A stretch of DNA of 8,371 nucleotides from Candidatus Altarchaeales archaeon WOR_SM1_86-2 (GTDB taxonomy: Archaea > Altiarchaeota > Altiarchaeia > IMC4 > MCBC01), in assembly GCA_001723855.1 (NCBI GenBank), contig MCBC01000045.1, forward strand, positions 1-8,371. The letters run 5' to 3'. Below the pieces are notes generated by a model. That model made no database searches and was not told the origin of the DNA. It saw nothing but the letters and a program-made list of their open reading frames with translations. Made by a program: the position numbers and the translations under genes. Positions 1,573-6,948 of this stretch are shown piece after piece. The stretch's first letter is position 1. The number at the start of each line of letters is the position of its first letter.

Positions 1573-2210
1573 TCATAACCATCCGCCCACATTCATTTCA
1601 AAATTATGATCCATCCAGGTAGGAGTTGGCTCAATAATTCTCATGTCCCGGATGTCCACAAGCCCAGGATCTATTCTTACCGCTTCTTTAAATTCTTTTT
1701 CTGCATCCTCATATCTTTTTAGATGATAGTATAAGATTCCAAGGTTATTATGAGCTTTGATATGTTTGGGGTTTAATTTTATTGCCTTTTTAAATTTGCA
1801 CTCTGCCTCCATATATCTCTCTCTATTTTCCAACAAAACCCCAAGAGAATGATGAGCATCCGCTAAGTGTGGATTTAATCTTATCGCTTCTTTAAACTCT
1901 TTTTCTGCATCCCCATACTTATGTGACGTGCACAATAAAACCCCCTGTCATAATGAGCATCTGCTTTTTCTAAGGATATCTTTATTGCTTCCCTAAATTC
2001 CTTCTCAGCATCTTTATATCTTCCTGCCATATATAATAAAATCCCAAAGTTGTGATGAACTTTGACATTATTTGGATCCATCTCCAAGATTTTTTTGAAT
2101 ATCTTTTCTGCTAATTTCGGATCATTCATCGCTTTAGAACTCGCAGTTTCAATCAAAGTTTTTATGTCCTTAGACTCTATGGCATCTCCTAAGACCTTAT
2201 CAATATCCAT
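1573..2210 (-). pseudogene. TPR-repeat protein interrupted by a one-base frameshift
   Basis: Two overlapping minus-strand frames (1881-2210 and 1573-1935) are the halves of one tetratricopeptide-repeat protein of about 212 residues. The first half ends properly with EKADAHYDRG and then leaves the TPR pattern; the second frame resumes with VLLCTSHKYGDAEKEF. The break is at the G run read on the minus strand (plus 1942-1946, five C). Six bases would give D-R-G-V-L-L in one frame. The joined protein shows about four full repeats of the form AHxxLGxLLxxxxRYxDAEKEFKEAIRLNP plus partial ones, and no signal peptide or membrane segment. TPRs usually act as protein-binding scaffolds; the partner is unknown. 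The start at 2210 is preceded by AAAGGA about 10 bases upstream. A real mutation, slippage-based expression or a homopolymer sequencing error are all possible. Confidence 0.82.
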
Positions 2211-2272
2211 CCCCCGTATTTCCTTTTATGGTTCTTCTCCCGATCCAGAATGATTAGTAAACAAATCTAAGG

Positions 2273-2402
2273 GACGTGGCGGAACTTCGCTTGACATATG
2301 TCCGATGTGGCTGAGAGGATTTGCCTCTCAGACGCGCGTCTCAGAACCAAAGGTGTGGCGGAGCGAATCTCCGACACGTGTCTGACCAAAGGTCAGCCAC
2401 AT
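2273..2402. repeat. Three-unit structured repeat with covarying 10-bp palindromes
   Basis: Three related units each begin with GTGGC (2276, 2307, 2355), form a small hairpin, then carry a 10-bp perfect palindrome of pattern GAC-RYRY-GTC: GACATATGTC (2293-2302), GACGCGCGTC (2331-2340) and GACACGTGTC (2373-2382). The hairpins are GCGG/TCGC in unit 1, CTGAGAGG/CCTCTCAG (2311-2318, 2324-2331) in unit 2, and CGGAG/CTCCG (2359-2363, 2369-2373) in unit 3; their sequences differ but pairing is kept. A further hairpin, CTGACC/GGTCAG (2382-2387, 2391-2396), closes the array. ATGTGGCTGA (2305-2314) is also an exact inverted repeat of 2393-2402. The plus-strand frame across it (2298-2516) runs into low-complexity sequence and is not a credible gene. 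This may be a dispersed intergenic repeat or a structured RNA. Confidence 0.6.
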
Positions 2403-2573
2403 TTGCTCTTTGATTTTTTCTTGTTTTTATATATTATACATTTCATAAATAAAAATACATTCGTAGCAGGTCGATTTACTTTTATGTTTCAAAAAAGATT
2501 TTTAACATTTTTGTGAAAAATCAAAAATTTCTTTTCGTTTTCAAAAATATGGTGGAAATCTTAATCTAATTTT
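2403..2573. other. AT-rich intergenic stretch
   Basis: Mostly A/T with T-rich runs (for example 2414-2429). I see no coding frame with recognisable features and no clear paired promoter and terminator. Confidence 0.4.
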
Positions 2574-4134: not shown

Positions 4135-4563
4135 ATGGGTAAGGGAGAATTCGCAGCAAAAAAACTGAGATCGCACAGGAAAGGCTATAGATGGAAGGAG
4201 GAATCATATAAACGCAGAGTGCTGGATTTGAAAAAGAGGGGGGATCCGTTAGAAGGTTCTCCTCAGGGGCGGGGAATAGTTCTGGAGAAGGTTGCAATAG
4301 AAGCAAAGCAGCCGAATTCGGCACTTAGAAAGTGCGTTAGAATACAGCTGATCAAGAACGGCAGGCAGCTCACGGCATTCTGTCCGGGAGATAAAGCGAT
4401 CTCCTTCATTGAGGAGCACGATGAAGTTCATGTCGAAGGAATTGCAGGAAGAAAAGGAAGATCATACGGCGATCTCTCCGGGGTCAGGTACAGGGTCTTT
4501 AAAGTTAATGACGTCTCCCTTAACGAATTAGTCCACGGCAGAAAGGAGAAGCCTGTGAGATAA
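4135..4563 (+). CDS. rpsL: Small ribosomal subunit protein S12 (uS12), archaeal type
   Basis: This 142-residue basic protein is uS12 of the archaeal/eukaryal (S23e) form. The N-terminal tail [20 protein letters not shown] and the decoding-centre loop with [19 protein letters not shown] are diagnostic, as is [18 protein letters not shown]. uS12 lies at the 30S/50S interface, contacts the decoding site and controls tRNA selection fidelity. Length is normal for archaea. In many archaea this gene stands between nusA and the S7 gene with the elongation factors; here it follows an HD phosphohydrolase and is followed after 1 nt by a secreted coiled-coil protein, so the usual operon is broken up. Confidence 0.98.
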
Positions 4564-4975: not shown

Positions 4976-5012
4976 TTCTTTATCTTATTGTAATCCATAT
5001 TATTCATAAAGG

Positions 5013-5522
5013 GTGGAAGTAGAATCCTCGGAGAACATCAGAAGGGATGTAAAGACGAGGTACAATAAAAATCCGAGAAACTGGCAGTTTTTGGTGGGCA
5101 GAGACGAGAGTAATTACCTTAATTCCGTGATCCTGCATGGGAAGGACATGTGGATAATAAAGGAGGAAGCAATTAATCCATATAAATCTCTCGGACTGGG
5201 GGTTAAAACCAAGATCGACAGGAATTTCAAACCATCTCCCTACTCGTTTGGTTTAAGGCCTATAAGTCATGATCTGGAAATGGAAATCCTCGGCGGAGAT
5301 ATTCCTGCAGCGGTCGAGATTATTGAAAAAATACTGCGCAAAAAGCCGGTTTCGTATGATAAGGTCGGTAAAGAGAATTTAATCCTTCAAGGTCCTGTAA
5401 TCTCCCAGGAAAAGCCCATCACCTTCTCAAAAGCGCAGCAGGAATTGGACAGAAAATTAAGAAAAAGCCTCAGAGACCTGATTTACAAAAAACGCCCGGA
5501 TTTGATGACTCCTTATGTATAA
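5013..5522 (+). CDS. Uncharacterised 169-residue soluble protein
   Basis: The frame is intact, rich in Lys/Arg and aromatic residues, with no signal peptide or membrane helix. The N-terminal half reads like a compact alpha/beta domain (NPRNWQFLVGRDESNYLNS, then DMWIIKEEAINPYKSLGLG). The C-terminal part contains PAAVEIIEKILRKKP and a basic helix ending RKSLRDLIYKKRPDLMTPYV, possibly for nucleic-acid or protein contact. The start is a GTG at 5013; a TAA two codons upstream rules out a longer frame, and no ATG competes nearby. It lies 37 bases after the coiled-coil gene, so it may be the last member of the S12 transcript; T/A-rich sequence follows its stop. I recognise no family or motif. Confidence 0.75.
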   Translation: MEVESSENIRRDVKTRYNKNPRNWQFLVGRDESNYLNSVILHGKDMWIIKEEAINPYKSLGLGVKTKIDRNFKPSPYSFGLRPISHDLEMEILGGDIPAAVEIIEKILRKKPVSYDKVGKENLILQGPVISQEKPITFSKAQQELDRKLRKSLRDLIYKKRPDLMTPYV

Positions 5523-5657
5523 AAAATTGAAAATTTTTGATAAAAAATCAAGTTGCAAGGAGTAGTTATAAAAAAACTGAAAATCATACAAGAAAAGTAT
5601 TTAGTATATTAAATTTTAATGAAAGAAAATTTAAGAAAAAAAGGATAATGTTATAAG
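5523..5657. other. AT-rich spacer before the structured RNA
   Basis: Low-complexity A/T sequence with a weak hairpin TTGAT/ATCAA (5537-5541, 5547-5551) just after the preceding stop codon, which may contribute to transcript ending. No gene is seen. Confidence 0.35.
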
Positions 5658-5677
5658 AAAAAAAAGGTTTTTATATT
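5658..5677 (+). promoter_or_regulatory. Strong archaeal promoter for the structured RNA
   Basis: A purine-rich run of A ending in GG (5658-5667) looks like a TFB-recognition element directly followed by the TATA box TTTTTATAT (5668-5676). Spacing predicts transcription start near 5698-5700, exactly where the terminal helix of the predicted RNA begins. Confidence 0.6.
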
Positions 5678-5698
5678 CAAGATGTTAATAATCTTTAT

Positions 5699-5994
5699 AG
5701 ATATATGGGGAATTCAAGTAATTCATCAAACAGACGCCTCATTGATGTGCAAATAGGGACGCATGTCGATTTTGCAACAACTTGCTTCGGCGGTTTGCTG
5801 TGAAACGCCCTTCGGGGAGGTGAAGTGTGCTGGAGAATTCGCTCTTAAGTGGTTAATTGGCTTCGGTCGATTAATTGCCTGTAGGGTTTTGATGAATATA
5901 TTACATGTCGCAACTTTCGGGTTGTGAGTGTCCAGCGCTTCGGTGCCGAACATAATGTAATATGGTTCGCCCTGCTTGGCCCTATAATATATCC
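5699..5994 (+). ncRNA. Candidate structured non-coding RNA of about 295 nt, family unknown
   Basis: No coding frame fits, but the plus strand folds into a closed architecture. P1 joins the ends: GATATAT/ATATATC (5700-5706, 5987-5993), extended by GGG/CCC (5707-5709, 5980-5982) past a 4-base bulge. Inside, P2 is a 10-bp helix (5721-5730 with 5888-5897), and P3 a 9-bp helix (5898-5906 with 5955-5963), giving a three-way junction. P2 encloses hairpins including a 13-bp stem 5849-5861/5866-5878; P3 encloses two more. UUCG tetraloops cap hairpins at 5786-5789, 5811-5814, 5862-5865, 5916-5919 and 5939-5942. UUCG is the stabilising loop only on this strand, which together with promoter and poly-T positions sets the orientation. 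Size and end-pairing resemble RNase P or SRP RNA, but their conserved core sequences are not found. Other options are a regulatory or lineage-specific RNA. Confidence 0.65.
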
Positions 5995-6009
5995 TTTTTC
6001 TCTTTTTTA
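5994..6009 (+). terminator. Poly-T terminator of the structured RNA
   Basis: Two T runs (CTTTTTC and CTTTTTT) follow immediately after the last paired base of the predicted P1 helix, the usual archaeal intrinsic termination signal. Confidence 0.55.
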
Positions 6010-6051
6010 AATCTCTTAATGTTTCTTCTTATACTGTTTCTATAATTAAAT

Positions 6052-6948
6052 ATGCAAGCGGTAATACCCTGTGCAGGAAAGGGAAAGCGCATGCTGCCAC
6101 TGACAAAATTTAAGCCGAAACCAATGCTCCCCATACTGAACAAGCCCGTATTAGAGTATGTTATTGAAAAGTTAAAGGCTTCGGGGATCGATGAGATAAT
6201 CTGTGTTATAGGGGAAAAGGGGGGCGGAATAAGAGATTATTTTTCAGATTTGATTTTCGTTGAGCAGAGAATTCCACTCGGGACTGCGGATGCCGTGCTG
6301 AGATGCAGAGGACTAATTAAAGATGACTTCCTGTTGGTTTGGGGCGACCACCTCTTTGAATTTGATATAAAAAAGACCGTGGAATTTCATAAAAAATACC
6401 GCTGTGATGCGACCCTTTCCCTCCAGAGAGTGGAACATCCGGAAAGAATTGGCGTTGCGGAGGTTGATGGATCGAAAATAATCGGGGTCTGCGAAAAACC
6501 AAGAAAACCAAAAACGGATATTGGAACCGTCGGATCATATATTTTAAGCCCTGTGATTTTTGATTATTTAGAAGATTTAAATGTTGTGTCTAAGGGAGAA
6601 TATGAGTTTACCGACGGAATACAAAAAATGATAGCTGCGGGCTGCGAGGTTAGAGGGAGATTTGTGAGAAAGTGGCGTAAGAATCTCACAACACCATTTG
6701 ATTTGCTGGAAGTAAATCTCAGGTTTTTGAATAAGAAAAAGAAAAAATTTTTATATGGGGAAAATTGCAAAATAGATTCTGATGTTCATAACTCAGTGAT
6801 CGGGAATAATTGTTCACTAAAAAACTGTGAAATAGAAGATTCATTGATTCTTGATGATGTGGAGATTAAAAACTCAAAGATAAAGGGCTCTGTGATAAAC
6901 TACAAAAGCAGGTTATCCGGGATGGAAGTCATTGACGAAATTGTTTAA
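6052..6948 (+). CDS. Sugar-1-phosphate nucleotidyltransferase with short C-terminal beta-helix
   Basis: This 298-residue protein is a nucleotidyltransferase of the glucose-1-phosphate uridylyl/thymidylyltransferase and GlmU type, making an NDP-sugar from NTP and sugar-1-phosphate. Visible are the nucleotide-binding loop PCAGKGKRMLPLT (6-18) with KPKPMLPI, GTADAV (77-82), the metal-binding WGD (97-99), GVAEV (134-138) and EKP (148-150). Residues from about 244 on (NCKIDSDVHNSVIGNNCSL and following) have the spaced hydrophobic pattern of a left-handed beta-helix, but only a few turns. That is too short for a full acetyltransferase, so it probably serves oligomerisation. Substrate specificity is not decided by sequence; likely roles are cell-surface glycan or glycosylation precursors. 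The ATG has no Shine-Dalgarno and A/T-rich sequence just upstream, suggesting a leaderless or short-leader mRNA. It converges on argS with one base between the stops. Confidence 0.92.
   Translation: MQAVIPCAGKGKRMLPLTKFKPKPMLPILNKPVLEYVIEKLKASGIDEIICVIGEKGGGIRDYFSDLIFVEQRIPLGTADAVLRCRGLIKDDFLLVWGDHLFEFDIKKTVEFHKKYRCDATLSLQRVEHPERIGVAEVDGSKIIGVCEKPRKPKTDIGTVGSYILSPVIFDYLEDLNVVSKGEYEFTDGIQKMIAAGCEVRGRFVRKWRKNLTTPFDLLEVNLRFLNKKKKKFLYGENCKIDSDVHNSVIGNNCSLKNCEIEDSLILDDVEIKNSKIKGSVINYKSRLSGMEVIDEIV

What the first reader, a model, noticed from the sequence alone, without database searches (positions are those of the whole stretch)
5658..6009. Unassigned structured RNA with three-way junction and multiple UUCG-capped hairpins
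A complete transcription unit is visible: purine run plus TATA box, pairing of the two ends (5700-5709 with 5980-5993), long-range helices of 10 and 9 bp, five hairpins with UUCG loops, and a poly-T end. Promoter-predicted start and terminator coincide with the ends of the fold. It does not show the conserved core of RNase P RNA or the SRP helix 8 motif that I can recognise, so it may be a new or highly diverged RNA.
Basis: partly seen in the sequence, partly recalled or inferred. Interest (0 to 1): 0.78.

Follow-up and report, generated by a model that had tools for sequence, protein, structure and literature searches.

The report
New orphan structured RNA in archaea
This stretch is very probably the gene of a folded, non-protein-coding RNA of about 295 bases that matches no catalogued RNA family, has two relatives with the same fold in another archaeal genome, and has an unknown job.

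Summary
Window 5700-5993 (+) looks like an archaeal structured-RNA gene: TATA-like box 30 nt upstream, paired ends, five UUCG-capped hairpins (0.1 expected), T-rich end. Rfam gives nothing there (best E 3.6). A one-sequence covariance model hit 1 of 29 genomes of the Altiarchaeota phylum (G027, E 9.7e-15); a two-sequence model then found a second G027 copy that was not in it (E 3.5e-27). The three RNAs (299, 207, 208 nt) share one fold. On my hand-fitted core alignment 23 of 60 pairs change on both sides (1-3 when slid); an unfitted alignment gives 12 of 62, only some free of misalignment. DNA similarity between the G027 copies stops near the RNA's ends. G027 has separate SRP and RNase P RNAs. 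Neighbouring genes are unrelated, so I favour a trans-acting RNA (0.65) over a leader (0.2); function and transcription are not shown. Known range: this window and one genome.

The parts
5670..5676 (+). TATA-like box TTTATAT, preceded by a purine run (possible BRE)
   Evidence: Sequence; 38 nt before the conserved GGGAA here, 36 in B, 45 in C. No promoter assay.
5700..5996 (+). The RNA, about 295 nt; start and end inferred from the promoter, the P1 helix and the reach of the covariance-model match
5700..5710 (+). P1, 5' strand (pairs with 5980-5983 and 5987-5993)
   Evidence: 4 of 10 modelled P1 pairs change on both sides; 3 of them also in the unfitted alignment
5980..5993 (+). P1, 3' strand, with 3-nt bulge 5984-5986 (AUA; AUA in B, AUG in C)
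5714..5720 (+). P2, 5' strand (pairs with 5973-5979)
   Evidence: 7 of 7 pairs standard in all three RNAs, 1 changed on both sides
5973..5979 (+). P2, 3' strand
5721..5730 (+). P3, 5' strand (pairs with 5888-5897)
   Evidence: 5 of 10 pairs change on both sides; not in the minimum-energy fold
5888..5897 (+). P3, 3' strand
5735..5738 (+). P4, 5' strand (with 5819-5822); register uncertain: RNAalifold pairs this strand further 3', with the conserved GUGU segment
   Evidence: 1 of 4 pairs changes on both sides in my register; other register, without changes on both sides
5741..5770 (+). h1 hairpin, stem 5741-5750/5761-5770, loop with AUAGG conserved in all three
   Evidence: 10 of 10 pairs standard in all three, 2 changed on both sides
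5771..5804 (+). h2 hairpin, UUCG loop here and in B, not in C
5808..5817 (+). h3 hairpin, UUCG loop here, UCAG in B and C
   Evidence: 1 of 3 pairs changes on both sides
5849..5878 (+). h4 hairpin, 13 bp with UUCG; variable between copies, placed by hand in the alignment
   Evidence: Probability 0.5-1.0 in the window RNA
5898..5963 (+). h5: 9-bp stem with two UUCG hairpins (three-way junction); a single short hairpin in B and C
5970..5972 (+). Unpaired CCC before P2', conserved in all three; possible partner of the h1 loop
   Evidence: invariant columns; the pairing itself is not shown
5994..6008 (+). T-rich tract, likely termination region
   Evidence: Sequence

Best explanation
It is a stand-alone noncoding RNA gene of a new family. 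RNA polymerase starts near 5700 from a TATA promoter and stops in the T-rich tract (inferred). The RNA closes on itself through P1 and P2, stacks P3 on them, and presents a multibranched domain (P4, h1, h2, h3) plus side hairpins h4 and h5. Shown: the conserved fold with covariation in three copies, and that only the RNA is conserved between the two G027 copies. Inferred: it acts in trans, as a scaffold for protein(s) or by base pairing. The invariant unpaired elements (AA between P1 and P2, AUAGG in the h1 loop, GUGU after P4, CCC before P2', AU in the P1 bulge) are the likely contact sites; the h1 loop may dock on CCC or on CCUAU as a pseudoknot.
For: Single-sequence model hits 1 of 29 genomes at E up to 1, with E 9.7e-15; a second copy, not in the model, at E 3.5e-27. 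23 of 60 pairs with changes on both sides and 98.9% of 178 cells paired on the hand-fitted alignment, against 1-3 pairs and 35-48% when slid. In the unfitted alignment 12 of 62; the 3 in P1, 1 in P2 and 1 in h3 are free of alignment doubt, 2 in P3 are real between B and C. Similarity of the two G027 loci is one 203-bp segment matching the RNA to within about 10 bp at E up to 0.01. TTTATAT upstream of all three. Unrelated neighbouring genes in the three places. Every frame on both strands of the three RNAs holds at least one stop.
Against: Only three sequences, two of them paralogues in one genome. No expression data. The hand alignment was fitted with the structure in view. The comparative structure of the window RNA is less stable than its minimum-energy fold (-82.3, or -87.7 with further pairs allowed, against -92.5 kcal/mol), and P3 is not in that fold. 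The P4 register is ambiguous. Copy C has its TATA-like box 7-9 nt farther off and no clear T-run. All three copies precede a same-strand gene, as a leader would.
Confidence: 0.65

Rival explanations
1. Cis-regulatory leader (riboswitch or attenuator): the RNA lies in the 5' leader and controls the downstream gene, for example by choosing between P1 (GGGR with UCCC) and pairing of the h1 loop AUAGG with CCUAU before a U-tract.
For: 3 of 3 copies are followed by a same-strand gene after 58, 132 and 52 nt; 1 in 8 by chance if orientation is random. AUAGG and CCUAU are both invariant and complementary.
Against: The downstream genes are unrelated: a sugar nucleotidyltransferase-like protein, an Ssb-like OB-fold protein and a 476-aa protein without Pfam match. 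Each gap holds a TATA-like hexamer in a simple pattern scan that had no chance control. 200-300 nt is large for a leader.
Confidence: 0.2
2. A highly diverged copy of a known RNA (RNase P/MRP-like, SRP-like or another Rfam family) that the models miss.
For: Size of 200-300 nt and paired ends fit such RNAs in general.
Against: No Rfam match of note for three divergent copies; G027 has its own RNase P and SRP RNAs.
Confidence: 0.08
3. A palindromic mobile element (MITE-like) whose terminal repeats only look like P1.
For: The ends pair; two copies 48 kb apart in G027.
Against: Changes on both sides in internal helices; only two copies in G027 at E up to 10; no match of the window RNA in phages or of B and window 4980-6060 in plasmids; no reported repeat lies close on both sides of B or C. 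Short target-site duplications were not tested.
Confidence: 0.04
4. Chance structure or a coding region.
For: Energy z-score only -1.75; an antisense 75-aa reading frame at 5726-5953.
Against: Covariance-model matches and double changes; at least one stop in every frame of each RNA.
Confidence: 0.03

Closest known systems
Archaeal SRP RNA (Rfam RF01857)
   Same: Stand-alone archaeal RNA of about 300 nt with paired ends (general knowledge of SRP)
   Different: No match of the window RNA, B or C to it; G027 has its SRP RNA elsewhere (C6)
Archaeal RNase P RNA (Rfam RF00373)
   Same: Similar size, P1 formed by the two ends, multibranched (general knowledge)
   Different: No match; G027 has its RNase P RNA elsewhere (C3); the conserved CR-I/CR-V core, as recalled, is not visible
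Orphan structured RNAs found by comparative genomics (Weinberg et al. 2010, PMC2864571; abstract and passages seen)
   Same: Found by covariation, function unknown, several thought to act in trans
   Different: In the passages shown, crcB and flpD are the motifs marked for archaea or Euryarchaeota, both with Rfam numbers; the Rfam scan of the window RNA, B and C showed neither
Riboswitch or attenuator leaders
   Same: Lies before a same-strand gene and is followed by a T-tract in the window
   Different: Unrelated downstream genes in the three places

Membership tests
Archaeal RNase P RNA | Match to RNase P covariance models | tested here: not met
   None; the same model rings elsewhere in G027 (80.5 bits)
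Archaeal SRP RNA | Match to the RF01857 model (helix 8 motif included) | tested here: not met
   None; G027 has one elsewhere (159.6 bits)
Box C/D guide RNA | C box (RUGAUGA) and D box (CUGA) next to a kink-turn | tested here: not met
   UGAUGA at 5890-5895 lies in P3 and is not in B or C (read); only a chance C/D-family match at E 3.6 on the other strand. Motifs recalled
Box H/ACA guide RNA | ACA-type box about 3 nt from the 3' end, pseudouridylation pocket | tested here: inconclusive
   By eye no ACA before the inferred 3' end at 5993-5996; the pocket was not tested and the 3' end is inferred. Motif recalled
Structured RNA gene | Changes on both sides that keep pairs | tested here: met
   23 of 60 pairs fitted, 12 of 62 unfitted
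Structured RNA gene | A transcript of the predicted size | not testable with these tools
   No RNA data at hand
Cis-regulatory leader | Constant type of downstream gene | tested here: not met
   Three unrelated downstream genes; only three copies
MITE-like mobile element | Several near-identical copies with flanking duplications | tested here: inconclusive
   Two copies, 82% alike over 203 bp, in G027; no close flanking repeat reported in L113 or L144; short duplications not tested; the window's genome not available

The most novel reading that the evidence does not exclude
A founding example of a new class of archaeal trans-acting RNA, present in more than one copy per genome and able to switch between P1 closure and an h1-loop/3'-strand pseudoknot (AUAGG with CCUAU), serving as the RNA part of an unknown ribonucleoprotein.
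Probability: 0.3. Interest if true: 0.8.

Novelty: categorically new. Interest (0 to 1): 0.6.

Why it matters
Few large archaeal RNAs outside rRNA, RNase P and SRP are catalogued (general knowledge). A covariation-supported RNA of 200-300 nt with no Rfam relative, duplicated in one genome, gives a concrete target for metatranscriptomics, structure probing and pull-down. 'Categorically new' refers to the RNA family (sequence and fold); the mechanism is not shown.

Tried and rejected
Nucleotide BLAST of the RNA against the 29 genomes at E up to 10 gave only short matches in all 29 (best E 0.0044 in G028, in the AT-rich tail; the list was cut); one of them (G027, 77% over 39 nt, E 0.27) later proved to be the real relative. 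A 17-base pattern with up to 3 mismatches was uninformative: 29 of 29 genomes matched, with similar numbers for the reversed control (list cut). A gapped pattern from the three RNAs matched two viral contigs, which the R2 model did not support (0 of 2 at E up to 10): chance. Phages (window RNA) and plasmids (B, and window 4980-6060): no match. R2 in 7 genomes reached through other S12 loci: 0 of 7. R3 in 389 genomes of the phylum of G030: 1 of 389 at E up to 0.1 (E 0.056, G253), taken as chance over that many genomes; that search used stricter filters. R3 over the 29 genomes also gave one match in G017 at E 2.4, taken as chance. The nucleotidyltransferase gene did not lead to the RNA in relatives: 29 of 29 genomes have homologues, the best-scoring about 37% identical, and G027's listed ones are not next to its two RNAs. 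A kissing pair UUACGC/GCGUAA, seen by eye in B and C, is the same in both and absent from the window RNA: inconclusive. A pseudoknot of the h1 loop with CCC or CCUAU: partners nearly invariant, so untestable here.

Full report
Where it lies. The window is archaeal: archaeal-type ribosomal protein S12, ArgS, a sugar nucleotidyltransferase-like protein, an HD-domain protein and tRNA-Val. S12 is 75% identical to that of a Candidatus Altiarchaeota contig (L001) and 70-73% to nine other loci titled Euryarchaeota or Thermoplasmata archaeon (10 of the 19 loci compared). The 169-aa gene upstream of the RNA has relatives in 2 of 29 genomes of the phylum of L001. Placement in or near Altiarchaeota is therefore likely, not proven. 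No whole genome is held for the window.

The observation. All stated features are there. Five UUCG-capped hairpins of 3 bp or more lie in 294 nt; 2000 dinucleotide shuffles average 0.114 and none reaches five. The minimum-energy fold alone is weak evidence (z -1.75, 7 of 100 shuffles as good).

Rfam. The whole window at E up to 5 gives the tRNA, an antisense match on the tRNA and one chance match at 2484, none at the RNA. The element alone at E up to 10 gives one match at E 3.6 on the other strand, far below its family threshold. The stretches of the two relatives give one match at E 1.1, far below its threshold, and none.

Finding relatives. A model from the window RNA alone (R1), run over 29 genomes of the phylum of L001, hit 1 of 29 at E up to 1: G027 C12:475305-475511, 62.8 bits, E 9.7e-15; call it B. 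A model of window RNA plus B with a corrected structure (R2) hit the same genome twice and no other of the 29 at E up to 10. The second place, C12:427328-427535 minus, scored 85.9 bits, E 3.5e-27, although it was not in the model; call it C. A three-sequence model (R3) added nothing beyond these two except an E 2.4 match in G017, and gave 1 of 389 genomes of the phylum of G030 (by kin titles Thermoplasmata-type) at E 0.056, which is expected by chance over that many genomes. Seven genomes reached through S12 loci gave 0 of 7 with R2. So the known range is this window and one genome. The 389-genome search used stricter filters, and only these two phyla could be reached, so absence elsewhere is not shown. 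On the core alignment the window RNA is 60.5% identical to B (177 columns) and 51.7% to C (176), and B to C 77.4% (199).

The fold. P1 (5700-5706/5987-5993 and 5707-5710/5980-5983, 3-nt bulge AUA/AUA/AUG), a 3-nt AAW bulge, P2 (5714-5720/5973-5979), P3 (5721-5730/5888-5897), P4 (5735-5738/5819-5822) closing h1, h2 and h3, then h4 inside P3 and h5 between P3 and P2. On the hand-fitted core alignment (204 columns, 60 pairs, 178 cells) 98.9% of cells pair and 23 pairs have changes on both sides; shuffles average 9.0 (0 of 500 reach 23), and sliding the partners by 1-3 columns gives 1-3 such pairs and 35-48% paired. Caveats: the structure was derived with these sequences in view; h2, h4 and h5 were placed by hand; bases were trimmed or padded with N. 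The first 61 nt and last 24 nt of the window RNA and B align without gaps, so P1 and P2 do not depend on that freedom. An unfitted MAFFT alignment folded by RNAalifold gives 12 of 62 pairs changed on both sides: 3 in P1, 1 in P2 and 1 in h3 are free of alignment doubt; 2 in P3 are real between B and C, with the window row misaligned; in the other 5 the window row is misaligned, so they should not be counted. That fold also pairs the 5' strand of P4 in another register, with the conserved GUGU segment, and without any change on both sides there; P4 is therefore the least certain core helix. P3 is not in the window's own minimum-energy fold, and the comparative structure is less stable than that fold (-82.3, or -87.7 with further pairs allowed, against -92.5 kcal/mol): a point against, or a sign that proteins or tertiary contacts help.

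What is conserved. Of 84 unpaired core columns 26 are invariant, and 59 of 120 paired ones (N-padded columns count as not invariant). The unpaired ones include AA after P1, AUAGG in the h1 loop, GUGU after P4, CCC before P2' and AU in the P1 bulge. UUCG loops are not conserved: B has UUCG only in h2, C has none there, and both have UCAG in h3.

Unit of conservation. The two 16-kb stretches around B and C share only one matching segment at E up to 0.01: 203 bp at 82%, coinciding with the RNA to within about 10 bp. Every frame on both strands of the three RNAs holds at least one stop.

Not RNase P or SRP. G027 has both elsewhere (RNase P 80.5 bits on C3, below the 84-bit cut-off but full-length and E 8.3e-23; SRP 159.6 bits on C6). 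In the phylum set RNase P matched in 25 of 29 genomes at E up to 1 (16 of 29 over the cut-off) and SRP in 24 of 29, so the same tools do find those RNAs there.

Cis or trans. All three copies precede a same-strand gene (58, 132 and 52 nt), but the genes differ and each gap holds a TATA-like hexamer in a simple scan without a chance control. I favour trans action; three copies cannot settle it. TTTATAT lies upstream of each copy, but 7-9 nt farther from the conserved GGGAA in C, and C lacks a clear T-run.

Literature. Six searches: Altiarchaeota with non-coding RNA, Altiarchaeota with RNase P, Altiarchaeum with small RNA and transcriptome (one paper each), and three on new structured archaeal RNAs (20 of 37, 20 of 32 and 5 of 5 papers listed). 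Nothing in the listed titles and abstract starts describes this RNA. I saw the abstract and passages of PMC2864571 and passages of PMC12133352, and only listings of the rest. That is not proof that it is unpublished.

Noticed in passing
window 2265-2410: A strongly foldable palindromic intergenic stretch (begins and ends with complementary GAUGUGGCUGA / UCAGCCACAU): z -2.94 on + and -2.71 on -, 1 of 200 shuffles as good on each strand. Possible MITE-like element or second structured RNA.
   Followed up: partly
G020 and G026: Weak extra RNase P-model matches beside the main one (G020: 40.0 and 32.3 bits; G026: 21.7 bits), possibly diverged or second RNase P-like RNAs.
   Followed up: no
window 5013-5522 (+): A 169-aa protein without Pfam or NCBIfam match; a search of 5.8 billion proteins lists only 5 relatives including the window's own, plus matches in 2 of 29 genomes of the phylum.
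   Followed up: partly
window 4135-4563 (+): The S12 gene stands apart from the ribosomal-protein genes that follow it in L001 (names of the L001 proteins recognised by eye).
   Followed up: no
window 1573-2210 (-): Two overlapping reading frames in different frames that both look like tetratricopeptide repeats by eye, perhaps one interrupted gene; the DNA shows four 47-nt repeats about 102 apart.
   Followed up: no
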